Shown here: positions 12,421 through 64,000 of the stretch, piece after piece
Layout of the letters: the number at the start of each line of letters is the position of its first letter
Numbering within the stretch: the first letter of the stretch is position 1
Source: Diphasiastrum complanatum
Taxonomy: Eukaryota; Streptophyta; Lycopodiopsida; Lycopodiales; Lycopodiaceae
DNA length: 64,000 bases
Reading direction: 5' to 3'
Assembly (NCBI GenBank): GCA_029204225.1
Contig: CM055094.1
Span: 19,120,065-19,184,064, forward strand
Made by a program: the position numbers and the translations under genes
Notes under the pieces: model-generated
What the model saw: the letters and a program-made list of their open reading frames with translations, nothing else
Told to the model about the DNA's origin: nothing
Databases searched by the model: none

Positions 12421-12430
12421 CAATTCCTAA

Positions 12431-13348
12431 ATGTGCCCTAAAAGACACAAAAAACAGCAAGTATCAAATCTAAAAAGTCAGCACCAAAATGTGTCGAAAC
12501 CACACATTAGATGGATGCAGGAACTCGCCCTCCTACAAGCCTTGTGTGCTGAAAATTTCAGCCTGAAATTGCATTACAAACTCAAAAAACCAGCAAGCAA
12601 AGAATTAGGTTACCCCCAAAAAAGCAATATTCCTTTGAACGGGATTGACGATTTGAAAACTATTATGACTAAAATGATTTGTTCGGCATTTAAAATTGCC
12701 AAAATCAAATTGCTCAAATACAAACGAATATCTGGAACCAATGATTTTAAATGGGTTTCGAAAAATACAGGTTCATATGAATGGAGTACTATAGACCGCA
12801 AGAATACGTTATGCATTTGGAATTCCTATTTGATAGACAATTGCATTATCAGACTTGGGGATCATACTTGGCGACAGGTCGGGGGAATACCAATGGGTTT
12901 TTCATATTCACCAATGTCTTGTAATTGGTACCTTTCTTTTTTTAAAATGTAGTTTATTAAGAGGCTTGCAAGATTAGGGGAAATTAAATTTATAAACGAC
13001 TTCAAATATTCGTTCAAGTACATTGACGATATATGCTTTATCAATAATCATACGGTTGGTCGTTTCCTAGACAAGACTCAACCAAGAACACCTGACAATC
13101 CTTTTTGGATCTATCCCCTGGAATACCTTGAGATAGGCGGAAACGACAACACATGTAATTTGGTGAACTTTCTGAATATTACAATTACCTTTAACCCAAT
13201 TATCGGTTGTACACATCTGTCCAAATATGATAAAAGGGGAGACCTTCCTTTTTGCTTTTTGCAATATATACACCTTGCCTCATATAGACCCGTGTTTAAC
13301 TCATATAATAGGTCTTTGGTAACTTGGGGTAGCTTGATATGTATCTAG
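12431..13348 (+). pseudogene. YIDD reverse transcriptase-like ORF, one nonsense codon (RT copy 1)
   Basis: One frame from MCPKRHKKQQ to a stop at 13346-13348, broken only by TAG at 12950-12952. RT landmarks: RQVGGIPMGFSYSPMS (box B'-like), the catalytic YIDD at 13019-13030, and a downstream LSKYDKRGDLPFCFLQYIHL segment. The last resembles the YDKR-x2-F/PF tail of a family of uncharacterised reverse transcriptases common in algal and invertebrate genomes. No endonuclease, protease or integrase is visible and the N-terminus is short, so it may be a fragment. The C-terminus runs into C repeat. RT copy 2 (41792-42709, minus) has Gln at this stop but its own TAA elsewhere. Confidence 0.7.
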
Positions 13349-13569
13349 GCAACTAATAAAACAACAACACACCTCTGGATGGCTTCACAAGCTTCTCTAA
13401 CTCATTCTTATGATACCATCATTATGTCTAACTTTCCAAATACTAGATGCAAGAGTATTTGACAGATTCCTAATTCTTTACTCTCCAAGTGTTGTTTGTA
13501 GCTCATCGTAGATGCTTTGAGAATAATGTTACTAGTTATATTTATTGGAGGGGGGGGATTTTGGATATT
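13316..13569. repeat. C repeat with G tract
   Basis: 'ggtaacttggggtagcttga' repeat followed by 'ctttactctccaagtgttg' and a short G run near 13550. It starts inside the RT 3' end in both RT copies, so the RT was truncated into this repeat before duplication. Confidence 0.6.
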
Positions 13570-16019: not shown

Positions 16020-18100
16020 CATGCAATAATCATCGCTTCCACATCCTATCAAAGCAACATTGCTCCAAAGTTTTCCACAAATTTCTAGTCTCCATACACT
16101 GCCGAACAATACTCTACATACACTGCTCAGAGAGCCTAGGCCCCATGCTCTGCAATCACTGTGGACCAAGCCGAGCGTCCATACTCTGCATTCACTATGG
16201 ACTGAGCTGAGCGTCCATACTCTACATACAAAGTTGATTGAGCCGAGTCCATCCAAAGACAACCGATCCGAAGTCCTCCACAGTCGACCGAACTGAGACT
16301 CCACTTGTCTGTTACCAGAGCCGAACCTTCAACAGAGTCATCAGCCGAGTCCAGAACCTGTCTGCCACAACACCTTCCAGTTCTGATGACCCAACTCAAG
16401 ACAGAATTGACATCACCATGGAAAGCCTCGATATCTCTGAGATGAACACTTGGTACCAGGAGGCACACTAGTTCCTGAGCCACATAGAGTTCCAACTTCC
16501 TCTTTTCATCAGTGGCTATCAGAGCCCGTTTTGATTGCATATTGCTTATAACCACACCATCAGATTTTCCAGTTCATGTTACCTCCTAACCAAAATTGTG
16601 TTTATATTATCCCTATTTCTGGAGCTGACCTCAATACATTTGGCTTCCCTACGGGACCAAACACAGTCAATAGGACCCTCAAAAAGATTGAGTCCACAAC
16701 ATACTTCAAATACATAGACCCCTCAGTGGACAAATGGGAAAAAAAAGATGGTTACCTTATCGAGGTCATAAATGATAAGCCCTTAGCTGCTTCGTGCGCC
16801 TATCTAACGAAATATACATAGGGCTATAGGTCCAAGATCACGCGTATCCCCATGAAACTATTTCACATGATGGCTGACTATAAACTACACGATCAGAACC
16901 TTTATGACTGGGCCCAGTTTGCTTCCAACTGCCTCCATGACTATATTAAGAACAAGCAAACCTCCAATTATTGGGCTATCTTCTGATAGATGTCACTTTG
17001 CAACAGTTGAGCCACTGACCTCAATTTTGAGGCCACTTGATGCTAGCAGATAAAAGCTTGGGAGACTCCCTCAAAACTAGCCAAGAATACCAACTCTACT
17101 TCTAGGCCTATTGCAACAGATTCCACGCAAGCGGCTTCCCAAAAGAGAAAGAGTTCCTTCTCTCCACAAGGGCCAACTGCAAAACACCAAACGGTCGACC
17201 TAGTGAAGCTTACATCGAGAAAGACACCCATGTACTCTATGTCACATACGACGGATCGATACAAGCGAAGCGTCATGCTTCATCAGATGAAACAGACTCA
17301 AATGATATGGAGTTTACATTCGAGGAGTTCCATGGCACAAAAGGGCTGTCTAAGAAATGCCATGTAAGAGAGAGAAAATCATCGAATTTTAAAACTCCGA
17401 CCGAGTTTTTGGTCTGCCCGCACAACTCCGATGACTTGACCTCACTAGTAACGTATGTAGTTAACTAGAAGTTGGGTAGCCGCAACGCGTGGGGTCCATA
17501 CTTCAAGATTCTATTTTCTACCATTAACTAACATGACTTCTCATGTAAATGCAAATCGTATTGCACATCAAAGTTTTCTTTCCATCTACTAAAGCGTTCA
17601 CATCAAAGAAAAATAGTCTTATCGATCTGCAAATCATGGCAAGAAACTTTGAATATTTTGGATCACAATGAGCGCCAACGTGAATCTAAATTTTTGAAAT
17701 TCTGAAAATATGGAGTGTGTTGGATCAAATGGAGTGGGAAGGTTATCTCAAACTTTTGCAATTCAAAATTTGCAATTTCAACACACATCCATTGAAAAAA
17801 TATTTTGCTTACTTTGCTCATAACTACAAAGCTTTGATTTTGCATATAAGGCAAGAAACATGAGTGTGATGGATCAAAAAGAGCGCCAAGGTCATTTCAA
17901 ACTTTTACAATTATTTTTTTTTATGATTAAGACGAGTTTTAATAGCTTACAAGATATATAACAAGTGGGTTTTCTACTAGATTAATCTATCGATTATTAA
18001 GATGTCTAAATATCATGTCCATATTGATCTTCCCATAGAATATGCTCCACTGTCGAGAAAGAATATGAAAGGATCCACCTTTCCAGCTCACCAAAGGACG
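16020..18100 (+). pseudogene. Gene X copy, 5' part (interrupted by copia-A)
   Basis: 12-codon repeats (16060-16260), the Ser/Asp link with MESLDISEMNTWYQEAH then TAG, the conserved domain at 16535-16986 (FPTGPNTVNRTLKKIES, KWEKKDGYLIEVINDKPLA, YDWAQFASNCLHDYI), a basic linker (AASQKRKSSFSPQGPTAKHQ), an EFTFEEF-type segment in another frame at about 17310-17470, and the start of the exon MSKYHVHIDLP at about 18003. The reading is cut at 18100 by copia-A and resumes at 24524. Several stops and frameshifts make it non-functional as it stands. It mirrors 39000-37140. Confidence 0.5.
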
Positions 18101-18105
18101 AAAGA
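18101..18105. repeat. Left target-site duplication of copia-A
   Basis: AAAGA directly before the LTR; the same five bases follow the right LTR at 24519-24523. Five-base duplications are typical of copia integration. Confidence 0.95.
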
Positions 18106-18182
18106 TGTGAAAATTGTCAACATTTCCTAGCTAGTTTGAGGCCTAAATTGGCTAAAATTGTAAATAGTTTTGGTTCTGGAGT

Positions 18183-18196
18183 TTCACACGTGTGAA
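18183..18196. promoter_or_regulatory. Perfect palindrome with CACGTG core in the LTR U3
   Basis: TTCACACGTGTGAA is a perfect 14-bp palindrome centred on a G-box, lying upstream of the TATA-like box. The same palindrome is at 23950-23963 in the 3' LTR. It is a plausible bZIP/bHLH binding site and the same core motif as the host arrays at 11.5, 35, 43 and 51 kb. Confidence 0.5.
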
Positions 18197-18310
18197 CCAG
18201 GCCACAATGTTTTTATTTACTGTATTTTTTCAGTATGATGAAGTGTCAAACTTCATACCCTTCAAAATGAGACCATTTTGATGTATTTTGGTCATATAAG
18301 CCATTTTTTC

Positions 18311-18319
18311 CTATATAGG
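18311..18319 (+). promoter_or_regulatory. Copia-A LTR TATA-like box
   Basis: ctatatagg about 205 bp into the LTR; the matching position in the 3' LTR is 24078-24086. It is the best TATA candidate before the R region; the start site is not determinable here. Confidence 0.45.
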
Positions 18320-18751
18320 GAATATCTAGGGTCAAGTACCTTCTAGAGAGAGGAGAGAGAGTCATCTTCCTCATCCATAAATAGTAGGGAAGTCGTGGAG
18401 AACAGGTTGGAGAAACCTTTTGTATGCTTCATTGAGATCAATAGATCATTGTCATTGTTTCTTCCTCCATTGAGAGCATTGTTGTGTGTATTGTCTTCAA
18501 GCTATTGTGTATGATCTTAGGTGCTTTCCAAAAGTGGTAGGCTGATGTATTATGGACTGTATAATGCTATTTTGGGCCGCACTTGATGTTTATGGAAGTT
18601 TCCATTTGTGATAAATGCTTTTTGATCAAGTTCTTTGCATTCTAGGTAGCATAGAATGTGTTGCCAATTCCTAGCTTATGTAGTTTGGAGTGCAAGCATT
18701 CAAGCCAATGATCTTGGAGTTTAGATCCACTTAGGATCTGTATTTTTCACA

Positions 18752-18763
18752 TGGTATCAGAGC
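18752..18763 (+). other. Copia-A primer-binding site
   Basis: TGGTATCAGAGC immediately follows the LTR. It is complementary to the 3' end of plant initiator methionine tRNA, the usual primer for plant copia elements. Confidence 0.93.
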
Positions 18764-19944
18764 TGGTTGGCTTCTATTTACAGTAAGTATTCCATTTTTG
18801 GTGATATTTGGATGTTTGATCAAGTTCTAGCATGATTTTGCATTGCTTTGTTGATCAAATCTTACTAACCTTTGTTTTGTGAGTTGAACTTGTGGATCAA
18901 AAGCATATTTCAGGTCTATTGAAGATCAGAGGCTGAAAAGAAACTATTTTGGATCAGATCATAACACCTAATCATTTGTGATTGTGAGGCTTGTGCATAT
19001 TCAATACTAACAATGTTCTTTTCAATCCTATTGTTGACAATCTCCATTCTTGGATGAACACTCTCCTTAAGTGGATGAAACTTCTCCTTAAGTGGATGAC
19101 AAATGCTCTTTTGAGTGAGTTGTAATTCTCCTAAAGGCTGAGCAAAGCTCCCATTTGGATGAAAGATCCCCTTTTTTGGGTGAACATATTGTAAGCTCCA
19201 TTGTGAAGAGCATATTGTAAAGATTGTCATCAATTTTGGCATAAATTTTGGTGTACTTTGTTGAGCATGTAAGTAACTCTCCTTATGTAATTTGATTGGA
19301 GCATTTGCTGGAAGGTGTTAACCATTATGCAAGTGTGTTTTCAGGTTCTTAACAGGTTGAGGAACATTCTCATGTGAAGTGATCTTAGATCTACATCTAA
19401 ACACCAAGATTTGACAAGATAGTGAAGCTAGTCTTGTGATTCACTAAGTGTGCTCATTCATTCACCTCTAAATCTTGTATTTATCACTTGCTGGAGTTTA
19501 TAAACTTTTAGAAGTGTGGTTTACATGTGGTTTTACAGGTTGAATCAATATCTTAGTGTGTTGATCATATGTTGATCAAGTTTGTTCATTACTAGGTAAT
19601 CTTGGCATCCTAGTTTTGGGTATTTTCTAAGAATGCAAGTAACTCTTCACACCATAACTTGATTTGGTCACTTGCTGGAAAGTTTGAGAGCTTAAGCAAG
19701 AGTGTGTTCAGGTTGGTTTGATTTTGTAATCCATTCTTAGTGTGTGCAAAGTGTTGCATGTGTTTCAATCTTCCTTTCTATGCTTGGAAACCATCTAGGT
19801 TCAAGATAGAAGTGTTTTAGGGTCCTAAATCTTCATAAATCTCTTTATCTATCATTTGTTGAGAGAAAAGTGAGTGCTAAGTGCTTTAGGACAGAACCTA
19901 AAAGTTGAAGAAACATTAGAATCATCGCTTCCAATGGTGGGATC
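18764..19944 (+). other. Copia-A untranslated leader
   Basis: About 1.2 kb without a supported gene, long for a copia leader. It contains short imperfect direct repeats such as 'ctccttaagtggatga' (19055-19100) and repeated 'gtaactc..cac..ttgctgga' units. A five-codon upstream ORF (ATG at 19934) ends at 19951, overlapping the main start, and might reduce initiation. The leader presumably holds packaging signals. Confidence 0.5.
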
Positions 19945-22900
19945 ATGCTAGAGTCTAGTGAAAGGTTGAGTTCATCAAACTACTCTACTTGGAAAGTGAG
20001 GATGGAGTCCTTACTTGAGTTGAATGAACTCATGGACATAGTTGCAGAAATTGAAGAGAGACCTCTCACACTTCAAGAGCAACAAAGGTTTGATAAGAAG
20101 GCCAAAAGGGCTCTTCATATCATTAAAATGAATGTTACAAATGAACTTCTCAAGGAAGTTGGAAAGTGTCAAAGTGCAAGTGAGGCATGGAATGCCTTAA
20201 AGAAGCTCTTTGAATCAAAGTCCACATCTAGGGTATTGACCCTAAGGAGACAAATATTTTCTAGTAGGCAAAGAGAGGGTGAAAGTTCTCATGCATTTAT
20301 CTTGAGAGTTAAGTCCCTAAGTGATGATTTAGCATGCATTGATGAGAACATAAAAGATGGTGAAATAGTCCAAGTTATGTTGAATGGTTTGCTAAATGAA
20401 CATGCTAACCTTGTGCAAAGTTTTGCCATTCAAAGAGTCTTGCCAAGTGTGGTTGACTTGCAAGAAATCTTATTGGCTGAAGAACATAGGTTGCAATCAA
20501 AGCTTGATGGTGCATCCTTGCAAGGTGGAGGTGAAGAGGCTTTCTTCACAAAAGGCAAATTCAAGGGCAAAGGTAAAGGCAAAGGGAAATGGTCCAAAGG
20601 TGGTAACTTTGATCATGATGATCACTCTTCCTCTTCCTCTTCTACTAAGAACAATAAGTCAAAGTTCAAGTGCTTTTATTGTGGGATAAAAGGTCATTTT
20701 GCAAATGAATGTTATAAGAAGAAAAGAGAGCAAGGAGAGAGGCAAGGAAATCTTACAATAGATGAGGAAGAACATAACACATGTGAATCACTTGTTATGA
20801 CTTCAAGTTTGTTAGCCAACATAGATGATAATGATCCTTGGTGGATTGATAGTGGAGCCTCATCTCACATGACAAGACATAAGGAATACTTTACATCCTT
20901 ATTGTCTTATGAGGGAGAAGGTAACATCATCTACACTGCAAATGATGGTCAATGTGACATCAAAGGCATAGGCACTATTCCTATTTCCCTTTCAACAAAT
21001 AGGAAAGCAAATCTTGAAAATGTTTTGTACATTCCTTCAATCACTAAGAATTTGCTTAGTGTAAGTCAAATGATTGACAAAGGACTTGATGTGGAGTTCA
21101 TTGGAGATGCATGTTTGATAAGTAAATGTGGATCCTTGATTGCTCAAGGTAGGAGGCATGGTAAACTTTTCAAGCTTGATGCATGTGTGATCTCTAATCA
21201 TGAAGGATGTATGGCTAGGGAGCAATTGACAAACCAAGAAGTTTGGCACAAGAGGTTGGGCCATCCCAACTTCAAATCTTTGGAGGTAATGGCAAAGAAA
21301 GAGCTTGTTCTTGGTCTCCCTAAAAGTCTTGTTGCAAACAATAGTGTTTGTGAACATTGTGCCTTGTCCAAATCTCATAGACTTGCTTATTCTAGATCTA
21401 CTTCTAGATCTAAAGAAGCTTTTCAACTTGTGCATTCTGATATTCATTCTTCTAGTACAACTAGCAATGGTGGGGCAAAGATGTATGCAACTTTCATTGA
21501 TGACTTTAGTAGGTATACTTGGATCTATCTTCTTAAAAGTAAGGATGAAGTGTTTGCTGCATTTGTCAAGTTCAAGAATGAAATGGAAAACCAATTCAAT
21601 ACAAAGATCAAATGCTTAAGATCTGATAATGGAGGGGAATACACCTCAAATAGGTTCAAAGACTTTTGTATAGCACATGGGATTAAGAGGGAGATGTCTA
21701 GTCCTAGGACTCCACAACAGAATGGAGTGGCCGAGAGGAAGAATAGAACCCTTTGTGAATGTGCCAAGGCAATGAGACTACATGCTAATCTTGCTAAGTC
21801 TTTTTGGGGGGAAGCTTTAGCATGTGCTAACTATCTATGTAATAGATGGACAAGTGCTTCCTTGGATGGTAAAACTCCTCATGAGGTTCTTTATGGTAGA
21901 AGGCCGAGTGTCAAGCATTGTAGGATCTTTGGATGTACATGTTTTGTCAATATCACACTTGATGATAGAACTAAAGAAGATCCTTCATCAAAGAAGGGTG
22001 TGTTTGTTGGCTATAGTGAAGTAAGCAAGGCTTACAAAGTGTACATTCCTTCTACAAAGAAAGTTGTCATAAGTAGGGATGTCATCTTTCATGAAGAGAA
22101 TGTTTCCAATGTTGTTGATGTTGATGTTGATGTGCCTACTAATCATCATGATGTGCAAGATGTCTTGGATGAAGATGGAGATGCCACTCCAAAGCAAACT
22201 TCAAGGAAGACTCAAAGGCAAAGGGCTAAGCCATCAAGGCTAACCTATGATGAAAAAGGAAAGCAAGTGGTGGACAACTCTAACTTTGCTTTTCTTACCT
22301 CTTTTGATGAACCAACTTGTGTAGGTGAAGCAATTCAAAAGAAGGAATGGATCCAAGCCATGGATCATGAGCATCAAGCACTCATCAAAAGCAACACATG
22401 GAGGTTGGTAAAGCTTCCAAAGGACAAGAAGGCAATTGGTTGTAAGTGGATCTTCAAGATCAAGACAAATCAAGATGGATCAATCAACAAGTACAAGGCA
22501 AGGTTGGTGGCAAAGGGGTATGCTCAAGAATATGGTATTGACTATGATGAGACCTTTGCACCCGTGGCAAAGATGGTAACTATTAGAATCCTAATCTCTC
22601 TTGCAACTCTTTATGATTGGGATATGTGGCAAATGGATGTTACTAATGCCTTCTTGAATGGTGATCTTGAAGAAGATATTTACATGGAGCAACCCGAGGG
22701 CTATGTTTCACATGATGAGCCTAATCATGTGTGCTATCTCCAAAAGAGTTTGTATGGGCTAAAGCAAGCACCAAGGAGTTGGTATGCTAAGCTCAATTCC
22801 TTCTTACTTTCTCAAAACTTTGTTATGAGTGAGTATGATCATTCTCTCTACTTTAGATTGAATGAAAATGATATCACTTTACTTTTGATCTATGTTGATG

Positions 22901-23877
22901 ACATTATCTTAAGTGGTGGTAACAATCTAGATATAGATGAAATCAAGATGGCACTCAAAAGAGAATTTGAAATTCAAGATCTTGGTAAACTTCATTATAT
23001 CTTAGGAATAGAGATTATTAGAACTTCTAAATCTACATTCATATGTCAAGAAAAGTATGTTAACTCTATTCTAAAAAGGTTTCATATGGAAGATTGTAAA
23101 GTTGTTTCTACTCCTATGGAATCAAATGTAAAGCTAACTACAAGAAGTAATGAAAGATCCTTCAAGGACATTAATCTCTATAGAAAGCTAATAGGATCTC
23201 TTATATGGTTAACCATCACAAGACCTGATCTAAGCTTTGTGGTTGGTAAACTAAGTCAATTTATGCAAGATCCTAGTGAGGCTCATTGGAAGCTAGGAAA
23301 GAGAGTACTTAGATACATCTCGGGATCTAGAGATTTTGGCATCTTGTATGGAGGTACTACACCTAACCTTTGTGGATTTTCAGATTCAGATTTTGCAGGT
23401 GATCAAATGGATAGGAAGTCAACAAGTGCCTTTGCAATCTATCTTGGAGATGGAGTGGTCTCATGGCTATCAAAGAAGCAACCAACTATCTCTCTATCTT
23501 CCACCGAAGCCGAGTACAAGGCATTAACAACATGCACCAAGGAGATTCTTTGGATCAAGAGGATGTTATTGGATCTTCACTTGCTGGAACCAGAGAAGAC
23601 TCCAATCATACTTTGTGATAACCTTTCAGCCCAAAGCTTGGCAAGCAATCCTGTTTTTCATGCAAGGAGCAAGCACATTGAGATTGCTCACCATTTTGTG
23701 AGAGATCAAGTCATTGCCAAAGAGGTGGAGCTTCAACATGTCTCTTCAAAGGAGTGTGTGGCTGATATCTTCACCAAACCATTGGGAAAGGACCTATATT
23801 TAATGCATAGATCTAATCTTGGAATGTGCTCAAAGACTATGTTGAAACTAGCATCCAATGTTGAAGAGGGAGTGTGA
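19945..23877 (+). CDS. gag-pol: Copia-A gag-pol polyprotein (1310 aa), intact
   Basis: One open frame. Gag (about 1-240, with SSSNYSTWKVRMESLL); zinc knuckle C243-x2-C246-x4-H251-x4-C256; aspartic protease D302-S303-G304 in WWIDSGASSHMT; GAG_pre-integrase HHCC zinc site H435, H440, C469, C472; integrase core D499, D561, E597, with exactly 35 residues between the last two (DD35E); reverse transcriptase with QMDVTNAFLNG and YVDD at 983-986; RNase H with D1147/D1149, E1188/E1190 and D1225. Gag and pol are fused without a frameshift, as in most plant copia elements. Start: the first ATG of the frame, though it follows a short upstream ORF. The stop TGA (23875-23877) lies inside the first five bases of the 3' LTR. 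Confidence 0.97.
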   Translation: MLESSERLSSSNYSTWKVRMESLLELNELMDIVAEIEERPLTLQEQQRFDKKAKRALHIIKMNVTNELLKEVGKCQSASEAWNALKKLFESKSTSRVLTLRRQIFSSRQREGESSHAFILRVKSLSDDLACIDENIKDGEIVQVMLNGLLNEHANLVQSFAIQRVLPSVVDLQEILLAEEHRLQSKLDGASLQGGGEEAFFTKGKFKGKGKGKGKWSKGGNFDHDDHSSSSSSTKNNKSKFKCFYCGIKGHFANECYKKKREQGERQGNLTIDEEEHNTCESLVMTSSLLANIDDNDPWWIDSGASSHMTRHKEYFTSLLSYEGEGNIIYTANDGQCDIKGIGTIPISLSTNRKANLENVLYIPSITKNLLSVSQMIDKGLDVEFIGDACLISKCGSLIAQGRRHGKLFKLDACVISNHEGCMAREQLTNQEVWHKRLGHPNFKSLEVMAKKELVLGLPKSLVANNSVCEHCALSKSHRLAYSRSTSRSKEAFQLVHSDIHSSSTTSNGGAKMYATFIDDFSRYTWIYLLKSKDEVFAAFVKFKNEMENQFNTKIKCLRSDNGGEYTSNRFKDFCIAHGIKREMSSPRTPQQNGVAERKNRTLCECAKAMRLHANLAKSFWGEALACANYLCNRWTSASLDGKTPHEVLYGRRPSVKHCRIFGCTCFVNITLDDRTKEDPSSKKGVFVGYSEVSKAYKVYIPSTKKVVISRDVIFHEENVSNVVDVDVDVPTNHHDVQDVLDEDGDATPKQTSRKTQRQRAKPSRLTYDEKGKQVVDNSNFAFLTSFDEPTCVGEAIQKKEWIQAMDHEHQALIKSNTWRLVKLPKDKKAIGCKWIFKIKTNQDGSINKYKARLVAKGYAQEYGIDYDETFAPVAKMVTIRILISLATLYDWDMWQMDVTNAFLNGDLEEDIYMEQPEGYVSHDEPNHVCYLQKSLYGLKQAPRSWYAKLNSFLLSQNFVMSEYDHSLYFRLNENDITLLLIYVDDIILSGGNNLDIDEIKMALKREFEIQDLGKLHYILGIEIIRTSKSTFICQEKYVNSILKRFHMEDCKVVSTPMESNVKLTTRSNERSFKDINLYRKLIGSLIWLTITRPDLSFVVGKLSQFMQDPSEAHWKLGKRVLRYISGSRDFGILYGGTTPNLCGFSDSDFAGDQMDRKSTSAFAIYLGDGVVSWLSKKQPTISLSSTEAEYKALTTCTKEILWIKRMLLDLHLLEPEKTPIILCDNLSAQSLASNPVFHARSKHIEIAHHFVRDQVIAKEVELQHVSSKECVADIFTKPLGKDLYLMHRSNLGMCSKTMLKLASNVEEGV
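23863..23872 (+). other. Copia-A polypurine tract
   Basis: GAAGAGGGAG directly before the 3' LTR, the expected plus-strand primer. It overlaps the last codons of gag-pol, so the tract is both coding and a priming signal. Confidence 0.85.
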
Positions 23878-24518
23878 AAATTGTCAACATTTCCTAGCTA
23901 GTTTGAGGCCTAAATTGGCTAAAATTGTAAATAGTTTTGGTTCTGGAGTTTCACACGTGTGAACCAGGCCACAATGTTTTTATTTACTGTATTTTTTCAG
24001 TATGATGAAGTGTCAAACTTCATACCCTTCAAAATGAGACCATTTTGATGTATTTTGGTCATATAAGCCATTTTTTCCTATATAGGGAATATCTAGGGTC
24101 AAGTACCTTCTAGAGAGAGGAGAGAGAGTCATCTTCCTCATCCATAAATAGTAGGGAAGTCGTGGAGAACAGGTTGGAGAAACCTTTTGTATGCTTCATT
24201 GAGATCAATAGATCATTGTCATTGTTTCTTCCTCCATTGAGAGCATTGTTGTGTGTATTGTCTTCAAGCTATGGTGTATGATCTTAGGTGCTTTCCAAAA
24301 GTGGTAGGCTGATGTATTATGGACTGTATATTGCTATTTTGGGCCGCACTTGATGTTTATGGAAGTTTCCATTTGTGATAAATGCTTTTTGATCAAGTTC
24401 TTTGCATTCTAGGTAGCATAGAATGTGTTGCCAATTCCTAGCTTATGTAGTTTGGAGTGCAAGCATTCAAGCCAATGATCTTGGAGTTTAGATCCACTTA
24501 GGATCTGTATTTTTCACA
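23873..24518 (+). repeat. Copia-A 3' LTR
   Basis: 646 bp, two base differences from the 5' LTR over the full length by direct reading. Supplies the gag-pol stop codon and, presumably, the polyadenylation site. Confidence 0.95.
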
Positions 24519-24523
24519 AAAGA
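24519..24523. repeat. Right target-site duplication of copia-A
   Basis: AAAGA, identical to 18101-18105; followed by 'caggaaacattatg', the continuation of gene X. Confidence 0.95.
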
Positions 24524-25432
24524 CAGGAAACATTATGATCTATGGGTTGATGGATGTTTGTATCCAATCGATCCAAGCTCAATGCAACATCCAAATTTTA
24601 GATCGGTCATGCAACTCATACTGTTTTCGTGTGAAGGACACAATAGTCTATTGGATTATTGTGAAAGATTGAAAAGTTATGGCATTAGTTATTCAATGAA
24701 AAAAATCCACTGTTTGGAAAATATGTTGAATGGTTTGCTTACTGACTACCGAGAAAAAGAAATTTTTTTTTGCAAACAAAAGAAGAAAATGAAATCTTGA
24801 AAATAGATAATCCTCGTTTGCAAGATATTATATTAAACCTCAACCAAGAAACTGACAATATGAAACTAATTGTACAAACATTGTGTACCTCATATTGTCA
24901 AATAAATGTAGAAGTAAACACATTACGGAAGAAAATACTGAACAATAAGCGAAAAAGAGTTATTTTAAAAACTATTGACGAGCTCTCAACAAGTGGGGTT
25001 CAATGGAAAAAAAGAATATATGCTTTCAAGTAGGATTGTGTTTTAAACTATTCATGTGTTTTGTTTCATCTAGCACATCAATGGCTGTGAATTGTTTTTT
25101 TCTAAATCTTATTTGTATTTTGCAGAGCAGCTTTAGTCAGCAATGAAAATCTGAAAGACAAGGACATGATTGGAAAGTCTTTGAGTGCAGTACTTACAGC
25201 CAAGTCAACGACGAGTCTACTTGGAAATCAACGATATTCTCGAATCAAGCCCAAGATTGCAGAGGCGCTTATGGGTGAAGTCGGCAAGATCATTGACCGA
25301 AAATTGATACAAGGATCATGTGATTATTCTGGTATTAGCAGGGATGCATATGACACAATATTTGAAATTATCAAAGAGGCATTTGGACAAGTACATATAA
25401 AACAATTTCCTGCCCCTCCCCGCCTGTCTTTG
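24524..25432 (+). pseudogene. Gene X copy, 3' part after copia-A, with a 96-bp intron
   Basis: Continues X exon sequence: HYDLWVDGCLYPIDPSSM, then a region of coiled-coil character (24770-25030; ENEILKIDNPRLQDIILNLN...). A T9 run at about 24763-24771 puts the two halves one base out of frame; the mirror copy has the same defect at its T10 run. Intron 25030-25125 (GTAGGA...TTTTGCAG) is supported because splicing joins both flanking frames exactly, giving K-A-A-L-V-S-N-E into MIGKSLSAVLTAKSTTSL. At about 25411 the sequence jumps from VHIKQF into histone upstream sequence, so the last X exons are deleted in this copy. Confidence 0.55.
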
Positions 25433-25553
25433 CCACTCTCTCGCGTTGTAGCGATATCACCCTTAGAGTTCTCAGTGTCACCATTACGCGAGATAATTTA
25501 GCTTTCTCTTCTGCTGTATCTCCGTCCTCGCATGGTATAGATATCCGGCCTCA
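25433..25553 (+). promoter_or_regulatory. Upstream leader of the CENH3-like gene
   Basis: C/T-rich sequence with 'gtagcgatatcacccttaga' and 'tatagatatccggcctca' before the ATG. The 34.73-34.87 kb mirror copy has the same leader, but there it continues into a longer promoter region with a TATA box; in this copy the region upstream was lost at the X junction. No own TATA box is evident. Confidence 0.35.
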
Positions 25554-26012
25554 ATGGCTCGGACGAAGCAAACTGCTAGGCTTACCCATTTTGTTCAACT
25601 GTCCCGTCTCCAGACATCTGAACCCATACGTCCGCAAAGACGCGGAAGACCTCGCCATCCATGGTTGAGGGACATCAAGGCCTTGCAGAGGTACACCAAA
25701 CTTGTGATCCTGAAAGCAGCCTTGTACCGGACTGTGAGGGAGATTACACAAGATATGACAACCCATCTGCCCTATGCAGTGAGGTGGAATATCGCTGCAT
25801 TGGAGGCCCTCCATATTGCATACGAGGACTTCCAGACAAAATTGTTTGAGGATTCAATGCTGTGTTCCATTCATGGCAAGAGGGTGACACTGATGCCCAA
25901 GGACATGCTTCTTGTCATGAGGTTTCGAAACACCTATGACAGCGGTATGCCACATGGAAAATCATGCAGGCTTGAGGGTTGCCATGTGGCAAGCCATGTA
26001 GGCCTACCATAA
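25554..26012 (+). CDS. Centromeric histone H3 (CENH3)-like protein, copy 1, open reading frame
   Basis: 152-residue ORF. Residues 1-9 are MARTKQTAR, identical to the canonical H3 N-terminus; the rest of the tail is unlike H3. From R32 the alphaN and alpha1 region aligns without gaps to H3 (RP..WLRDI..Q to YRTVREI at 58-64). Loop 1 (TQDMTTHLPYAVRWNI, 65-80) is longer than in canonical H3 and contains Arg-Trp (77-78), a mark of plant CENH3. Alpha2 to alpha3 read [16 protein letters not shown] (89-104), [13 protein letters not shown] (105-117), then LLVMRFRN. Residues from about 131 come from satellite DNA. Canonical K9, K14 and K27 are not recognisable. Expected role: centromeric nucleosomes, if expressed. 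It could be an unexpressed retained paralogue. Confidence 0.8.
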   Translation: MARTKQTARLTHFVQLSRLQTSEPIRPQRRGRPRHPWLRDIKALQRYTKLVILKAALYRTVREITQDMTTHLPYAVRWNIAALEALHIAYEDFQTKLFEDSMLCSIHGKRVTLMPKDMLLVMRFRNTYDSGMPHGKSCRLEGCHVASHVGLP

Positions 26013-26753
26013 CCTTGTATGTCAAGCCAACTGAGCCCTGTGCCACGTAGGCTTGAGTGGACCTAGAGATATATATATATATATATATAGGTGGGCTCAA
26101 AAGATGCCACTTGGCAAACCATACAGGCCTACCATAGGCTTGCATGGCAGGCCACATAGGCATGGCATATTTTTTAATCTTCCCACGTAAGCATGTCGCA
26201 GGCTACCACATAGGCTTGCCATAGGCTTGTGTGGCAAGCAAACCAAGCTCTGCCATATAGGCTTGAGTGGAGCTAGAGAGAGAGAGAGCTGGGGCTCCCA
26301 AGTTGCCATGTGGCAAGCCATGTAGGCATGTCATGAGATAAGCCATAGGCTTGCATGGCAGGCCACATAGGCATGGCATATTTCTGATGCTTCCCACGTA
26401 AGCATGTCACAGGATACCACATAGGCTTGCCATAGGCTTGTGTGGCAAGCCAACCAAGCTCTGCCATGTAGGCTTGAGTGGAGCTAGAGAGAGAGAGCTG
26501 GAGCTCCCAAGTTGCCATGTGGCAAGCCATGTAGGCATGTCATGAGATAAACCACATAGGCTTGGGACTTGCCATGTGGCAAGCCATGTAGGCCTATCAT
26601 AGGCTTGCGTGGTAGGTCATATAGGCATGATATAGGCTTGATGCTAGTATGTTCATGCTGGTATGTTGCAGTCTGCCATATAGGCTTGACATAGGCTTGT
26701 GTGGCAAGCCAACTAAGCTATACCACGTGGGTCTGCCATGTAGGCTTGAGTGG

Positions 26754-26757
<4 letters not shown>
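26013..26757. repeat. Tandem satellite, about 210-bp period, with nested subrepeats
   Basis: Units recur at 209-211 bp (for example 'ataggcttgcatggcagg' at 26134 and 26345; 'gctcccaagttgcc' at 26294 and 26503). Each unit is built from shorter variants of 'ccatgtggcaagcc', 'ataggcttg' and 'gtaggc', plus a short GA run. TA run at about 26069-26088. Inverse arrays with the same period are at 33.58-34.3 and 63.06-63.8 kb, always beside the histone gene. Apparent ORFs with MACHMATWE repeats are artefacts of the array. Confidence 0.85.

Positions 26758-26758
<1 letters not shown>

Positions 26759-26831
<73 letters not shown>
26759..26831. repeat. (GA)n microsatellite
   Basis: 73 bp of uninterrupted GA. 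The corresponding (CT)n tracts are 25 bp at 33559-33583 and about 81 bp at 62981-63061, so the locus is length-variable among copies. Confidence 0.97.
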
Positions 26832-33500: not shown

Positions 33501-34300
33501 CGTTGATGCTAGGCCATACCACAGGGAAGTAGTTCATGTGTGACTCCTCACTCACACACTCTCTCTCTCTCTCTCTCTCTCTCATTCCACTTAAGCCTAC
33601 ATGGCAAACCCATGTGGTATAGCTTAGTTGGCTTGCCACACAAGCCTATGTCAAGCCTATATGGCAGACTGCAACATACCAGCATGAACATACTAGCATC
33701 AAGCCTATGTCATGCCTATATGACCTACCACACAAGCCTATGATAGGCCTACATGGCTTGCCACATGGCAATTCCCCAGCCTGTGTGGTTTATCTCATGA
33801 CATGCCTACATGGCTTGCCACATGGCAACTTGGGAGCCCCAGCTCTCTCTCTCTAGCTCCACTCAAGCCTACATGGCAGATCTTGGTTGGCTTGCCACAC
33901 AAGCCTATGGCAAGCCTATGTGGTATCTTGCGACATGCTTATGTGGGAAGCATCAGAAATATGCCATGCCTATGGTTTATCTCATGACATGCCTACATGG
34001 CTTGCCACATGGCAACTTGGGAGCCCCGCTCTCTCTCTCTAGCTCCACTCAGGGCTACATGGCAGAGCCTGGTTTGCTTGCCACACAAGCCTATGGCAAG
34101 CCTATGTGGTAGCCTGCGACATGCTTACGTAGGAAGCATCAGAAACATGCCATGCCTATGTGGCCTGCCACGCAAGCCTATGGTAGGCCTGTGTGGTTTG
34201 CCAATTGGCAACTTTTGAGCCCACCTATATATATATATAGATCTCTAGGTCCACTTAAGCCTACGTGGCACAGGGCTTAGTTGGCTTGACATACAAGGTT
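33501..34300. repeat. (CT)n plus ~190-210-bp satellite, minus orientation
   Basis: (CT)n at 33559-33583, then an array of 'gcctacatggcttgccacatgg' units. Some units are shorter than in the 26 kb array because 'gtggcctgccacgcaagc' segments are missing. TA run near 34226-34239. It adjoins the 3' end of the histone copy at 34310. Confidence 0.8.
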
Positions 34301-34309
34301 ATGGTAGGC

Positions 34310-34726
34310 CTACATGGCTTGCCACATGGCAACCCTCAAGCTTGCATGATTTGCCATGTGGCATACCGCTGTCATAGGTGTTGGCATCAGTGTCACCCTC
34401 TTGCCATGAATGGAACACAGCATCGAATCCTCAAACAATTTTGTCTGGAAGTCCTCGTATGCAATATGGAGGGCCTCCAATGCAGCGATATTCCACCTCA
34501 CTGCATAGGGCAGATGCGTGGTCATATCTTGTGTAACCTCCCTCATAGCCCGATACAAGGCTGCTTTCAGGATCACAAGTTTGGTGTACCTCTGCAAGGC
34601 CCTGATGTCCCTCAACCATGGACGGCGAGGTCTTCCGCGTCTTTGCAGACGTATGGGTTTAGATGTCTGGGGACGGGATGGTTGAACAAAATGGGTAAGC
34701 CTAGCAGTTTGCTTTGTCCGAGCCAT
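34310..34726 (-). pseudogene. CENH3-like copy 2, C-terminally truncated
   Basis: Begins MARTKQTARLTHFVQPSRP and keeps the alphaN, alpha1, loop 1 (HLPYAVRWNIAAL) and alpha2 sequence through KRVTLMP. There a deletion removes the coding sequence for KD and the C-terminal helix, and the frame runs into satellite (138 residues). Replacements against copy 1 include V61M and I64V in alpha1 and several in the tail. Without the alpha3 end a normal histone fold is unlikely. It is the only histone copy here with the G-box array and TATA box in place upstream. Confidence 0.75.
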
Positions 34727-35054
34727 TGAGGCCGGATATCTATACCATGCGAGGATAGAGATACAGCAGAAGAGAGAGCTAAATTATCTCGCGTAATGGC
34801 GACACTGATAACTCTAAGGGTGATATCGTTACAACGAGAGAGAGTGGCAAAGATAGGCAGGGAGAGGCAGGGGCTTGCATGATGGTGATACTGGGAAAGT
34901 CAGGCTGATATCGCTACGACATGAGAGGCTGTAAGGAATAGGCCTGGGGACAAGGTCGCTCGCATGATGGCGATATCACGAATGCAGGTCATATGGAAGC
35001 AATCAAACATGACAGCAAATTACGCGAAAAACCTATACAATCCCCGGGAATGGA
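34727..35054 (-). promoter_or_regulatory. Leader region between G-box array and CENH3-like copy 2
   Basis: About 330 bp with repeated 'gatatcgctacgac / gatatcacgaatg / gatatcgttacaacg' phrases, that is recurrent GATATC-centred motifs, between the minus-strand TATA box (35055-35063) and the histone ATG at 34726. It probably serves as 5' UTR or proximal promoter. Only its 3' part is retained before histone copy 1. Confidence 0.4.
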
Positions 35055-35532
35055 CTTATATAGTAGAAAAAAGTTGGCACGTGTGAATCCCAGCCACACG
35101 TGGCCTAGTCAATAGCTGACATGTGGAACCACATGTTTGTATACGCATGTGTGAAACTGCACATCTAGATCAACATGTGTAGGATCCCATGTGGGGACAT
35201 GTGGCCGAATGGATCAGCAACATGTGTTCTTGCACGTATCGGCTCGCATGTGTGGTCACGTGGCCCAATCAGTAACTAACGTGTGAGACCACACTTCTGT
35301 GTCTGCACGTGTGAAACTTGCACATGTGGCCATGTGGTCGAATGGTTTGGTGACGTGTGTTCTGGTACGTGTTAGCTCGCACGTGTGGGCACGTGGCCGA
35401 ATGGCAGATTGACGTGTATTGTAGCACGTGTGGTCTCACACGTGTGGACGGTTGTATTACGCGCCATAGATCTAATCCGTTGTTGGATCGACGAGTGTAC
35501 GACTTGGGTTTTATTGGTTTTAGCTATATAAA
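35055..35532. promoter_or_regulatory. G-box array with outward TATA boxes, copy 2
   Basis: Same design as 11445-11923: TATA boxes at 35055-35063 (minus strand, towards the CENH3-like ORF) and 35524-35532 (plus strand, preceded by ATTGG). The array between has several exact CACGTG and many CATGTG/ACGTG variants. The Kozak-ATG mini-ORF found beside the other arrays is missing here and the histone leader lies in its place. Confidence 0.5.
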
Positions 35533-35546
35533 TGTTGTTTGATCAG

Positions 35547-38500
35547 TTAAAACATTTCGCTAAGTTTTGGATTTTCACTCCCTGTAGCTCTTGGTGTGTG
35601 AACCAAATACCATTCCACCTTAAAATCACCTATTCTAGGAACATTGAGTGGTGTGTCGCTCATATGATTCTTAATTATCTCTGGATATTTTATTTTACTA
35701 AAAATCCAAAATAGAATTTCATGATCTTCTTTGAAACCTGTTTGACACACAAAATCATGAATTATTTTAAGAGAATTGAACTCAGACCTATAATAACAAA
35801 ACAATATTAGCTTAAAACACAAAACCATTAATTCTCAAAATGAATTAGTTGCTTGTACTCAATAGAATAGATTTAAACCTGGAAAGTTGCCAACCACCAA
35901 ATATTATTTTCGGACTGCACACTGAAATTAAGACTCTCCGAGTTTATCGTATTGCTTAATGTTCCATTCATAAGTGTAACACTAACCCTTTCCAGCTTTT
36001 GTCTCTTTATTACTTCTGATTCATCTAACTTGGAGAACTAATATCAATTTTTCAACAATTTCGTTTGTGATTCCATAAAACTTTACAATAAATCTCTATA
36101 AATGATTCAGATCTACAAACATATTTTTGGTAGAATCATATGACAAAGTGCCATGTTTTGAGTTATACATAAGGAATACCAATGATGTTTTGCAAACCCC
36201 TGTTTAACACATCCCTCTCTAATTTGATTTGGAAGGGTCAGGGATTAGAAAATTGTTTTATATGTACTTGTCCAAATGCCTCTTTGATAATTTTAAACAT
36301 TGTGTCATATGCATCCCTGCTAATACCAGAATAATCACATGCTCCTTGTATCAATTTTCGGTCAATGATCTTGTCGACTTCGCCCATAAGGGCCTCTGCA
36401 ACCTTGGGCTTGATTCGAGAATATCGTTGATTTCCAAGTAGACTCGTCGTTGACTTGGCTGTAAGTACTGCACTCAAAGACTTTCCAATCATGTCCTTGT
36501 CTTTCGGATTTTCATTGGTGACTAAAGCTGCTCTGCAAAAAAAAAATAAGATTTAGAAAAAGACAATTCACAACCATTGATGTGCTACATGAAACAAAAC
36601 ACATGAATAGTTTAAAACATAATCCTACTTGAAAGCATATATTCCTTTTTTCCGTTGAACCCCACTTGTTGAGAGCTCGTCAATACTTTTTAAAATAACT
36701 CTTTTTCGCTTATTGTTCAGTATTTTCTTCCGTAATGTGTCTACTTCTACATTTATTTGACAATATGAGGTACACAATGTTTGTACAATTAGTTTCATAT
36801 TGTTAGTTTCTTGGTTGAGGTTTAATATAATATCTTGCAAATGAGAATTATCTATCTTCAAGATTTCATTTTCTTCTTTTGTTTGCAAAAAAAAAATTCT
36901 TTTTCTTGGTAGTCAGTAAGCAAACCATTCAACATATTTTCCAAACAGTGGATTTTTTTCATTGAATAACTAATGCCATAACTTTTCAATCTTTCACAAT
37001 AATCCAATAGACTATTGTGTCCTTCACACGAAAACAGTATGAGTTGCGTGACCGATCTAAAATTTGGATGTTGCATTGAGTTTGGATCGATTGGATACAA
37101 ACATCCATCAACCCATAGATCACAATGTTTCCTGTCTTTCGTCCTTTGGTGAGCTGGTAAGGTGGATCCTTTCAGATTTTTTCTCGACTGTAGAGCATAT
37201 TCTATGGGAAGATCAATATGGAGATGATATTTAGACATCTTAATAATTGATGGATTAATCTAGTAGAAAACTATATATGTTATATATCTTGTAAGCTATT
37301 AAAACTCGTCTTAATTATAAAAAAAAAATAATTGTAAAAGTTTGAAATGACCATGGCGCTCTTTTTGATCCATCACACTCCATGTTTCTTGCCTTATATG
37401 CAAAATCAAAGCTTTGCAGTTATGAGCAAAGTAAGCAAAATATTTTTTCAATAGATGTGTGTTGAAATTGCAAATTTTGAATTGCAAAAGTTTGAGATAA
37501 CCTTGCCGCTCCATTTGATCCAACACACTCCATATTTTCAGAATTTCAAAAATTTAGATTCACATTGGCGCTCATTGTGATCCAAAATATTCAAAGTTTC
37601 TTGCCATGATTTGCAGATCGATAAGACTATTTTTCTTTGATGTGAACGCTTTAGTAGATGGAAAGAAAACTTTGATGTGCAATACGATTTGCATTTACAT
37701 GAGAAGTCATGTTAGTTAATGGTAGAAAATAGAATCTTGAAGTATGGACCCCACGCGTTGCGGCTACCCAACTTCCAGTTAACTACGTACGTTACTAGTG
37801 AGGTCAAGTCATCGGAGTTGTGCGGGCAGACCAAAAACTCGGTCGGAGTTTTAAAATTCGACGATTTTCTCTCTCTTACATGGCATTTCTTAGACAGCCC
37901 TTTTGGGCCATGGAACTCCTCGAATGTAAACTCCATATCATTTGAGTCTGTTTCATCTGATGAAGCATGACGCTTCGGTTGTATCGATTTGTCGTCTGTG
38001 ACATAGAGTTCATGGGTGTCTTTCTCGATGTAAGCTTCACTAGGTCGACCGTTTGGTGCTTTGCAGTTGGCCCTTGTGGAGAGAAGGAACTCTTTCTCTT
38101 TTGAGAAGCCGCTTGCGTGGAATCTGTTGCAATAGGCCTAGAAGTAGAGCTGGTATTCTTGGCTGGTTCTGAGTGAGTCTCCCAAGCTTTTATCTGCTAG
38201 CATCAAGTGGTCTCAAAACCAAGGTCAGTGGCTCAACAGCTGCAAAGTGACATCTATCAGAAGATAGCCCAATAACTGGAGGTTTGCTTGTTCTTCATAT
38301 AGTCATGGAGGCAGTTGGAAGCAAACTGGGCCCAGTCATAAAGGTTCTGATCGTGTAGTTTAGAATCAGTCATGTGGAATAGTTTCATGGGGATACGCGT
38401 GATCTTGGACCTATACCAGTTGACTGAGTTTGGTCCCCTAGGGAAGGAAAATGTATTGAGGTCAGCCCCAGACATAGGGATAATATAAACAAAATTTTGG

Positions 38501-49001: not shown

Positions 49002-49013
49002 ATGCATGGAATA

Positions 49014-49044
<31 letters not shown>

Positions 49045-62977: not shown

Positions 62978-63061
<84 letters not shown>
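62969..63061. repeat. (CT)n microsatellite
   Basis: Almost pure CT, 81 bp uninterrupted from 62981. Expanded relative to 33559-33583. Confidence 0.95.
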
Positions 63062-63064
<3 letters not shown>

Positions 63065-63800
63065 CCACTCAAGCCTACATGACAAACCCACGTGGTATAG
63101 CTTAGTTGGCTTGCCACACAAGCCTATGTCAAGCCTATATGGCAGACTGCAACATACCAGCATGAACATACTAGCATCAAGCCTATGTCATGCCTATATG
63201 ACCTACCACGCAAGCCTATGATAGGCCTACATGGCTTGCCACATGGCAAGTCCCTACCCTGTGTGGTTTATCTCATGACATGCCTACATGGCTTGCCACA
63301 TGGCAACTTGGGAGCCCCAGCTCTCTCTCTCTAGCTCCACTCAAGCCTACATGGCAGAGCTTGGTTGGCTTGCCACACAAGCCTATGGCAAGCCTATGTG
63401 GTATCCTGCGACATGCTTACGTGGGAAGCATCAGAAATATGCCATGCCTATGTGGCCTGTCACGCAAGCCTATGGTTTATCTCATGACATGCCTACATGG
63501 CTTGCCACATGGCAACTTGGGAGCCCCAGCTCTCTCTCTCTAGCTCCACTCAAGCCTACATGGCAGAGCCCGGTTTGCTTGCCACACAAGCCTATGGCAA
63601 GCCTATGTGGTAGCCTGCGACATGCTTACGTAGGAAGCATCAGAAACATGCCATGCCTATGTGGCCTGCCACGCAAGCCTATGGTAGGCCTGTGTGGTTT
63701 GCCAAGTGGCAACTTTTGAGCCCACCTATATATATATATATAGATCTCTAGGTCCACTCAAGCGTACGTGGCACATGGCCCAGTTAGCTTGACATACAAG
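63062..63800. repeat. ~209-bp satellite, minus orientation
   Basis: 'tggcaacttgggagccccag' recurs at 63301 and 63510 (209 bp). Mirror of 26.0-26.76 kb, TA run at about 63725-63742, adjoining the histone copy. Confidence 0.85.
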
Positions 63801-63801
63801 G

Positions 63802-64000
63802 TTATGGTAGGCCTACATGGCTTGCCACATGGCAACCCTCAAGCCTGCATGATTTGCCATGTGGCATACCGCTGTCATTCGTGTTTCGAAACCTCATGAC
63901 AAGAGGCATGTCCTTGGGCATCAGTGTCACCCTCTTGCCATGAATGGAACACAGCATCGAATCCTCAAACAATTTTGTCTGGAAGTCCTCGTATGCAATA
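63802..64000 (-). CDS. CENH3-like copy 3, partial (window edge)
   Basis: Minus strand, from residue 88 of the copy-1 numbering to the stop at 63804-63802: [44 protein letters not shown], then the satellite-derived tail. Alpha3 is intact, unlike copy 2. Two replacements against copy 1 are visible (L119P, Y128N). The rest lies beyond the window. Confidence 0.75.

What the first reader, a model, noticed from the sequence alone, without database searches (positions are those of the whole stretch)
25554..26012. CENH3-like centromeric histone carried inside an amplified repeat
The ORF has the full H3 histone fold with a lengthened loop 1 containing Arg-Trp and the SMLC...KRVTLM block typical of plant CENH3. 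Three copies (25554, 34310, 63802) lie in one 64-kb window, each next to the same 210-bp satellite. Normal genomes keep one or two CENH3 genes in unique DNA. A repeat that carries a centromeric histone could be a captured passenger or a selfish unit that influences centromere identity. The copy-number and sequence facts are read directly; any role is inference.
Basis: partly seen in the sequence, partly recalled or inferred. Interest (0 to 1): 0.9.

Follow-up and report, generated by a model that had tools for sequence, protein, structure and literature searches.

The report
Transposon-encoded CENH3-like histone, amplified fragments
In a clubmoss genome, a DNA transposon family carries a gene that joins a centromere-type histone to a SUMO-protease-like domain, and the copies in this window are cut-down pieces of that gene, fused to a satellite repeat and amplified, probably as passengers.

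Summary
The ORF is real: an H3 fold with a longer loop 1 (Pfam Histone 9.5e-21). Three copies sit beside the same ~210-bp satellite; copy 2 lacks the end of alpha-3 and copy 3 is cut by the window edge. The window lies on chromosome 3 of Diphasiastrum complanatum.

It is not a free-standing CENH3. In dispersed copies the frame continues into a lysine-rich linker and a Ulp1 (C48) protease-like domain, inside an element of up to 10.1 kb with ~28-bp inverted repeats. The window form is cut after codon 130 and joined to satellite: of the loci compared, 0 of 30 array copies but 6 of 6 dispersed copies keep the protease part.

A second, deeply diverged family shares the histone-linker-protease layout and intron position; between families synonymous sites are saturated while the protein is conserved. 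The TE histones group with plant CENH3 (92/91, moderate). All six family-1 copies compared carry lesions, four sharing a stop just after the catalytic Cys.

Transposons with captured H3, and others with Ulp1, are known; I found no CENH3-Ulp1 fusion in print. Function (anti-silencing or targeting) is inferred; constraint within the array is unclear.

The parts
25554..25943 (+). copy 1: CENH3-like H3 domain, complete fold (codons 1-130)
25944..26012 (+). in-frame tail of the ORF made of satellite sequence; stands where the linker and Ulp1 part follow in dispersed copies
25409..25553 (+). 5' leader of the transposon's histone gene, joined here to a gene A fragment by a deletion
26013..26831 (+). 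CATAGGCTTG-type satellite (211-bp period at 26132-26564) and AG run 3' of copy 1
17317..18105 (+). left terminal inverted repeat (CATTCGAGGAGTT..) and first part of transposon gene A
18106..24518 (+). Copia LTR retrotransposon inserted in gene A (LTRs 99.7% identical, open 1310-aa polyprotein)
24519..25408 (+). continuation of transposon gene A (exons and introns inferred from the reading frames)
36247..37926 (-). left end and gene A of the transposon fragment that carries copy 2
35036..35748 (-). last exon of gene A and CACGTG-rich promoter-like region with TATAAG upstream of copy 2; the part with gene B in L031 is deleted here
34383..34726 (-). copy 2: CENH3-like H3 domain lacking the end of alpha-3 (31-nt deletion); the ORF runs on to 34310
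33560..34367 (-). satellite 3' of copy 2
63802..64000 (-). copy 3: C-terminal half of the H3 domain plus satellite tail; cut by the window end
62980..63870 (-). satellite 3' of copy 3

Best explanation
A DNA transposon family of Diphasiastrum complanatum carries a gene whose first exon starts with a CENH3-derived histone domain, followed by a lysine/arginine-rich linker and a Ulp1-type (C48) cysteine protease domain. Shown: the layout, the inverted repeats, the dispersal, a protease profile match just above its cutoff, the sharing of this layout by two deeply diverged families, and constraint on the protein between families. One copy (or a few) was cut after histone codon 130, joined to a CATAGGCTTG satellite, and amplified with neighbouring repeats into arrays of about 3.3 Mb on chromosome 3, with smaller ones on C3 and C14. 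The window lies in the large array, and its ORFs are most likely passengers. Inferred: in the intact element the histone part places the protease on chromatin (by pairing with H4, or through its tail), where it removes SUMO-like modifiers from silencing proteins and so helps the element escape silencing. A targeting role, choosing where the element inserts, is the next most likely.
For: H3 fold. Longer frame in dispersed copies: 376 aa in L031 and 382 aa in L033. Ulp1: exon-1 tail plus exons 2-4 of L034 hit Peptidase_C48 at 21.6 bits against a cutoff of 20.7, E 2.2e-4, with HW, N and QQ..CG in place. Element: matching ends with ~28-bp inverted repeats in three copies of 10.1, 6.4 and 4.9 kb. 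Truncation: satellite junction segment in 30 of 30 array loci and 0 of 6 dispersed; protease part in 0 of 30 and 6 of 6 (in L026 and L027 the best junction hit belongs to a neighbouring copy). Of 151 genome matches to the protease-side part, none of the rows listed falls in the arrays. Second family with the same layout; the next exon after the same intron position in 4 of 5 copies looked at. Constraint: pS 0.83 against pN 0.40 between families 1 and 2; dN/dS 0.50, 0.54 and 0.49 in parts of the gene not used to pick the copies. CENH3 origin.
Against: No transcript or protein evidence was available. The C48 match is only just above its cutoff; exon 1 alone gave none, and PDB matches are weak (6dg4 Ulp1-like, E 0.62). 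All six family-1 dispersed copies compared carry at least one stop or frame-shifting indel; two share a TAG in the linker and four share a TAG five codons after the CG of the protease motif, so a defective lineage has itself spread. No target-site duplication is visible in the three copies with both ends, and no Pfam transposase was found. The CENH3 grouping rests on 98 columns, with 3 of 4 CENH3 rows recalled from memory; sequence and structure searches rank canonical H3 chains first, not CENP-A. Copies were picked by protein score, which lowers dN in the histone part. Passenger status in the array is not proven: histone p 0.043 equals the satellite's but is half the 5' leader's 0.084, and third positions vary most. 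The 7 kb upstream of one family-2 copy show no trace of the family-1 genes, so family 2's vehicle is unknown.
Confidence: 0.7

Rival explanations
1. Selfish centromere repeat: the amplified unit expresses a CENH3-like histone that marks its own DNA as centromere.
For: CENH3-type fold in a megabase-scale array next to a satellite; 54 of 93 array rows have no stop; pN/pS 0.32 among 30 array copies (biased by picking).
Against: The histone is cut off and runs into satellite (30 of 30 array loci carry the junction segment). The satellite was seen only on C3, C14 and one small contig (40 of 1328 candidates scored). 39 of 93 array rows carry stops.
Confidence: 0.06
2. The histone-protease protein mainly steers insertion: the CENH3-derived domain brings the transposition machinery to particular chromatin, possibly centromeric.
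For: CENH3 kinship and fusion to a second domain in two families. Tal1 integrase targets CENH3 chromatin in Arabidopsis (passage in PMC12859917).
Against: Copies with the protease-side part are spread over many chromosomes, although centromere positions are unknown. A protease domain is not needed for targeting.
Confidence: 0.2
3. Captured host sequence without any use to the transposon (transduplication, as in Pack-MULEs).
For: Host gene fragments are often captured; all six family-1 copies compared are broken somewhere, and some lesions are shared between copies.
Against: The same fusion occurs in two families whose synonymous sites are saturated. dN/dS is about 0.5 in regions not used for picking, dead copies included.
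Confidence: 0.15
4. The histone domain derives from canonical H3, not from CENH3, and resembles CENH3 by convergence or decay.
For: The window copy's tail starts ARTKQTAR as in H3. Support for the CENH3 grouping is moderate and the branches are long. PDB searches rank canonical H3 first.
Against: TE histones fall with CENH3 (92/91); holding them with H3 costs 10.7 log units, AU p 0.032.
Confidence: 0.2

Closest known systems
hAT transposons with captured histone H3 in fungi (Pseudocercospora fijiensis, Pyrenophora tritici-repentis); PMC6710886, abstract and passages read
   Same: A DNA transposon (~9.5 kb in P. fijiensis, short TIRs) carries an intronless H3-fold coding sequence in many copies, while the host gene stays elsewhere.
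   Different: There the capture is canonical H3 and no protease fusion is mentioned in the passages I read; 8-bp TSDs are present. In P. fijiensis the copies are inactivated by RIP; in P. tritici-repentis many may be active. Here it is CENH3-like, fused to a Ulp1 domain, conserved between families, with no TSD seen.
Kaonashi/KIU Ulp1 proteases in VANDAL-type MULEs of Arabidopsis; PMC6117577 and PMC13317346, passages read
   Same: A plant DNA transposon carries a C48 protease domain in many copies. KIU-type VANC genes are linked to hypomethylation of related copies.
   Different: Those are non-TIR MULEs; no histone domain is mentioned in the passages. The present element has TIRs, and no MULE domain was detected in the exons scanned.
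Fungal DNA transposons that encode TET/JBP dioxygenase; PMC12730594, abstract part and passages read
   Same: A DNA transposon carries a chromatin-modifying gene besides its transposase, thought to counter silencing.
   Different: Other enzyme, other mechanism.
Plant CENH3 (centromeric histone)
   Same: H3 fold, longer loop 1, Arg-Trp (or Phe) at the start of alpha-2, grouping in the tree.
   Different: Multi-copy, intronless in the histone part, altered alpha-N ([10 protein letters not shown] replaced), fused to a protease domain, mobile.

Membership tests
CENH3 (centromeric H3) | H3 histone fold | tested here: met
   Pfam 9.5e-21; model with helices 36-71, 80-107, 115-129 and nucleosomal H3 as the matches listed, at modest confidence pLDDT 68.5
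CENH3 (centromeric H3) | loop 1 longer than in H3 (that this and the Arg-Trp mark CENH3 is recalled) | tested here: met
   four more residues than H3..LPYAVRW..
CENH3 (centromeric H3) | phylogenetic grouping with CENH3, not H3 | tested here: met
   92/91 for TE histones plus CENH3; AU p 0.032 against grouping with H3; moderate support, three CENH3 rows recalled
CENH3 (centromeric H3) | single or few host genes with introns in unique DNA | tested here: not met
   repeated, intronless in the histone part
CENH3 (centromeric H3) | deposition at centromeres | not testable with these tools
   no ChIP or cytology held
Ulp1/C48 protease | profile match and catalytic His, Asp/Asn, Gln, Cys | tested here: met
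   L034: 21.6 bits against cutoff 20.7; HW, N, QQ, CG in place; that these are the catalytic positions is recalled; activity untested; four of six copies have a stop soon after CG
TIR DNA transposon | terminal inverted repeats | tested here: met
   ~28-bp TIRs at both ends of E32, E34 and L035, the last mutated at its right end
TIR DNA transposon | target-site duplication | tested here: not met
   none seen by eye in three copies
TIR DNA transposon | recognisable transposase | tested here: inconclusive
   gene A exons have no Pfam match; acidic residues and a CLYC motif hint at a transposase
hAT with captured H3 | 8-bp TSD and hAT transposase | tested here: not met
   no TSD seen, no hAT domain in the exons scanned
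KIU/VANDAL MULE | MULE transposase, no TIR | tested here: not met
   TIRs present, no MULE domain in the exons scanned

The most novel reading that the evidence does not exclude
A eukaryotic transposon encodes a chimeric histone: a CENH3-derived, nucleosome-competent domain that brings its own deSUMOylase into chromatin. The element would thus install an enzymatically active histone mimic at its own copies, either to block silencing (the family-1 tail resembles ARTKQTAR but has Leu in place of Lys9) or to steer insertion. This would be a kind of histone fusion and anti-silencing device not described in anything I found.
Probability: 0.3. Interest if true: 0.92.

Novelty: new variant of a known kind. 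Interest (0 to 1): 0.72.

Why it matters
Transposons are known to carry host chromatin genes, but a centromeric histone fused to a SUMO-type protease and conserved between diverged families would mean that a mobile element builds its own modified nucleosome. It could make testable how elements counter silencing and whether TE-borne CENH3 relatives interfere with real centromeres. Lycophytes are counted as having only symmetric meiosis (PMC11687628, passages), so classical centromere drive is not the expected reason. It is also a warning for CENH3 annotation: many CENH3-like frames in this genome (7686 and 5634 first-look candidates scored in each) are not CENH3 genes.

Tried and rejected
Selfish centromeric array: not favoured for the window copies (truncation, satellite seen on two chromosomes and one small contig only). 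My neutrality test on the array is mixed. Viral origin: a scan of viral contigs with alignment A4 gave 149 pattern hits and no relative. Protein-database search with the C-terminal part: 385 candidates, none at E <= 0.01; TE frames are often left out of annotation, so this is weak. The CENH3-profile search listed 120 of 7775 matches, mostly mis-named double H3s, and was of little use. Assigning the transposase: Pfam gave nothing. Searching for further host CENH3 exons in the next ~5 kb: none found, so the host gene rests on one 36-residue exon. In a tree with that exon its nearest rows are canonical H3 (79% identity over 33 columns), so calling it CENH3 rests on PLPFARLV and its introns. One search used wrongly oriented loci and is void. 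One search had one locus (L014) in the wrong orientation; it was turned for the pairwise figure and handled correctly, but the variant counts still hold it and are not used. The indel lists include columns where both rows have gaps; I read them against the alignment. Literature: eight searches, seen as listings, showed no CENH3-Ulp1 fusion and no transposon-borne CENH3.

Full report
What is there. The ORF at 25554-26012(+) is open and encodes 152 aa. It matches Pfam Histone at 9.5e-21 and histone H3 chains of solved nucleosomes, with canonical H3 ahead of CENP-A/Cnp1 chains. Loop 1 is four residues longer than in H3 and contains Arg-Trp. AlphaFold2 gives three helices (36-71, 80-107, 115-129) at modest confidence (pLDDT 68.5), and the 50 Foldseek rows listed are H3-containing structures. 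The second copy, 34726-34310(-), is missing 31 nt at the end of alpha-3; the third is cut by the window end. In copies 1 and 3 the histone part ends at the same point and the frame then runs into satellite. The satellite periods are 211, 186 and 209 bp.

Where it is. The window is G000:C3:19120065-19184064 of a 1.745-Gb genome. Contig C14 of that genome has the length (52,343,242) of the contig holding the best database homologue P0002, Diphasiastrum complanatum O6H91_14G014700, so I take the species as that clubmoss. The window is largely a mosaic of large repeated segments, with an inverted arrangement meeting near 32.9 kb and a Copia insertion at 18106-24518 (LTRs 99.7%).

Genome-wide copies. 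The first look gave 7686 candidates, of which the best 150 were scored and all 150 matched. My tally: 77 at C3:18.5-21.8 Mb (42 without stop), 7 at C3:29.9-30.2 Mb (6), 9 at C14:49.4-49.9 Mb (6), and 57 dispersed over 24 contigs (33). The satellite search scored 40 of 1328 candidates and gave 132 matches; the rows listed lie in the same C3 and C14 regions or on small contig C4891.

The parent gene. Dispersed copies do not stop at the satellite junction. L031 and L033 hold frames of 376 and 382 aa: histone domain, then a PPRKKRKQ..PKRSQPKP linker, then a further domain; exon 1 alone has no Pfam match outside the histone fold. After introns with GT..AG borders, three more exons follow. In L034 these read NKHWSVHVISM..MNSLHATHSM..SSQQDDAFSCGWY. 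Exon-1 tail plus exons 2-4 of L034 match Peptidase_C48 (Ulp1) at 21.6 bits, cutoff 20.7, E 2.2e-4. A PDB search gives only a weak Ulp1-like hit. All 30 array loci cut out carry the satellite junction segment and none the protease part; all 6 dispersed loci carry the protease part and none the satellite (in L026 and L027 the best junction hit belongs to a neighbouring copy). A protein search with the protease-side part gave 151 matches from 5026 candidates; none of the rows listed lies in the arrays. The window ORF is therefore a truncated, secondarily amplified derivative.

State of the copies. Each of the six family-1 dispersed copies compared carries a stop or frame-shifting indel somewhere in the gene. 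Two (L034, L036) share a stop in the linker; four (L031, L032, L035, L036) share a TAG in exon 3, five codons after the CG motif, where L033 and L034 have Trp. At least part of the family thus spreads with a shortened protease. I name no copy as intact.

The element. Comparison of dispersed copies gives common ends in three of them: CATTAGAGGAGTT..CCAAAAGGG at the left and CCCTTTTGG..AACTCCTCTAATG at the right, lengths 10.1, 6.4 and 4.9 kb, one right end mutated. The same left end is in the window at 17317(+) and 37926(-), with the same flank, so one insertion was co-amplified. The long copy contains gene A (several exons, possible transposase), gene B on the other strand, a CACGTG-rich promoter region, and the histone-protease gene. 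No target-site duplication is visible, and Pfam recognises no transposase in the exons scanned. The superfamily is left open.

Relatives in the same genome. A search with a Setaria CENH3-like protein scored 150 of 5634 candidates: 13 ordinary H3 genes, then many dispersed frames. Of 20 loci fetched, 8 form a second family (MDRRKQT..), with the same histone-linker-protease layout; in 4 of 5 looked at, a homologous exon (DHWSLNLISIKRSV..) follows at the same intron position, and the fifth, L053, is rearranged. The other 12 form a third family with an H3 fold at the C-terminal end of a proline-rich frame. One upstream stretch of 7 kb in family 2 shows none of the family-1 genes, so its vehicle is unknown. 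A host CENH3 exon candidate (..[36 protein letters not shown], followed by GT) lies at C3:74.79 Mb; no further exon was found in the next ~5 kb, and in a tree its nearest rows are canonical H3. Its naming is therefore tentative.

Origin and constraint. In a tree of 39 rows and 98 columns the three TE families fall together (94/87), families 1 and 2 are sisters (94/84), and the TE histones join plant CENH3 (92/91) apart from H3. Holding the TE histones with H3 is disfavoured (AU p 0.032); holding families 1 and 2 with CENH3 and without family 3 has p 0.067. Between families 1 and 2, pS is 0.83 and pN 0.40; between 1 and 3, 0.92 and 0.38; between 2 and 3, 0.76 and 0.37. Within families, dN/dS in the histone part is 0.33 (family 1), 0.14 (family 2) and 0.42 (family 3), but copies were picked by protein score, which biases dN down. 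In parts not used for picking it is 0.50 (family-1 exon 1), 0.54 (exons 2-3) and 0.49 (family-2 exon 1), dead copies included and stop codons left out. For 30 array copies mean pairwise distance is 0.043 in the histone part, 0.043 in the adjoining satellite and 0.084 in the 5' leader; codon positions 1, 2, 3 give 0.037, 0.035, 0.058, and pN/pS is 0.32. These array figures are mixed: they fit old constraint plus picking bias, and do not exclude some constraint in the array.

How it may work (inference). C48 proteases cut SUMO-like modifiers, and a CENH3-type domain can pair with H4 (both recalled). The simplest use for a transposon is a chromatin-bound protease that interferes with silencing; KIU-type Ulp1 genes in VANDAL elements are linked to hypomethylation of related copies (PMC13317346, passages), and TET/JBP genes in fungal transposons are thought to serve the same end (PMC12730594, passages). 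The window copy and L034 start ARTKQTAR with Leu at position 9; the other five dispersed copies have one to three changes in ARTKQTAR, and all six have Leu at 9. Whether this matters is not tested. Target choice is the main alternative.

Known systems. Capture of canonical H3 by hAT transposons is described in fungi (PMC6710886, abstract and passages). Ulp1 capture by MULEs is described in plants (PMC6117577, passages). A 2026 review of gene capture by plant transposons has no occurrence of 'histone' in its main text as held (PMC13317346). My eight literature searches listed no CENH3-Ulp1 fusion or transposon-borne CENH3. I therefore rate it a new variant of a known kind.

Noticed in passing
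12405-13560 (+), 42735-41582 (-): Broken ORF with a reverse-transcriptase-like GIPMGFSYSP..FRYIDD motif (recalled resemblance); it is preceded by the same satellite junction segment and CACGTG promoter module that flank the histone copies. No Pfam match for the two ORFs scanned, no meaningful PDB match for one.
   Followed up: partly
456-989, 49002-50507, 59440-59901 (+); 30969-29716 (-): Repeated ~660-bp coding module (..AYPCNFAIIDGSFSSQKECHTSI..), up to 501 aa open; two of these ORFs were scanned and have no Pfam match above its cutoff.
   Followed up: no
18106-24518: Apparently young Copia element with 99.7% identical LTRs and one open 1310-aa gag-pol frame, inserted in the transposon's gene A.
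   Followed up: partly
L049-L051, L054, L055, L059-L063, L065, L066: Third dispersed family: H3 fold at the C-terminal end of a frame that is proline-rich in most of these loci, no protease part seen.
   Followed up: partly
L069 (C3:74791650): Candidate exon of the ordinary host CENH3 with intron borders; rest of the gene not found within ~5 kb, and the fragment is nearest to H3 in a tree.
   Followed up: partly
G000:C3:21274466 and 21382229; 21276327 and 21384090: Pairs of array copies at an identical spacing of 107,763 bases, which suggests large segmental duplications inside the C3 array.
   Followed up: no
L031, L032, L035, L036: Four dispersed copies share a TAG just after the protease CG motif, which may mark a spreading defective lineage.
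   Followed up: partly
L071: A 258-aa open Copia integrase-like frame (recalled resemblance) upstream of a family-2 histone-protease copy.
   Followed up: no
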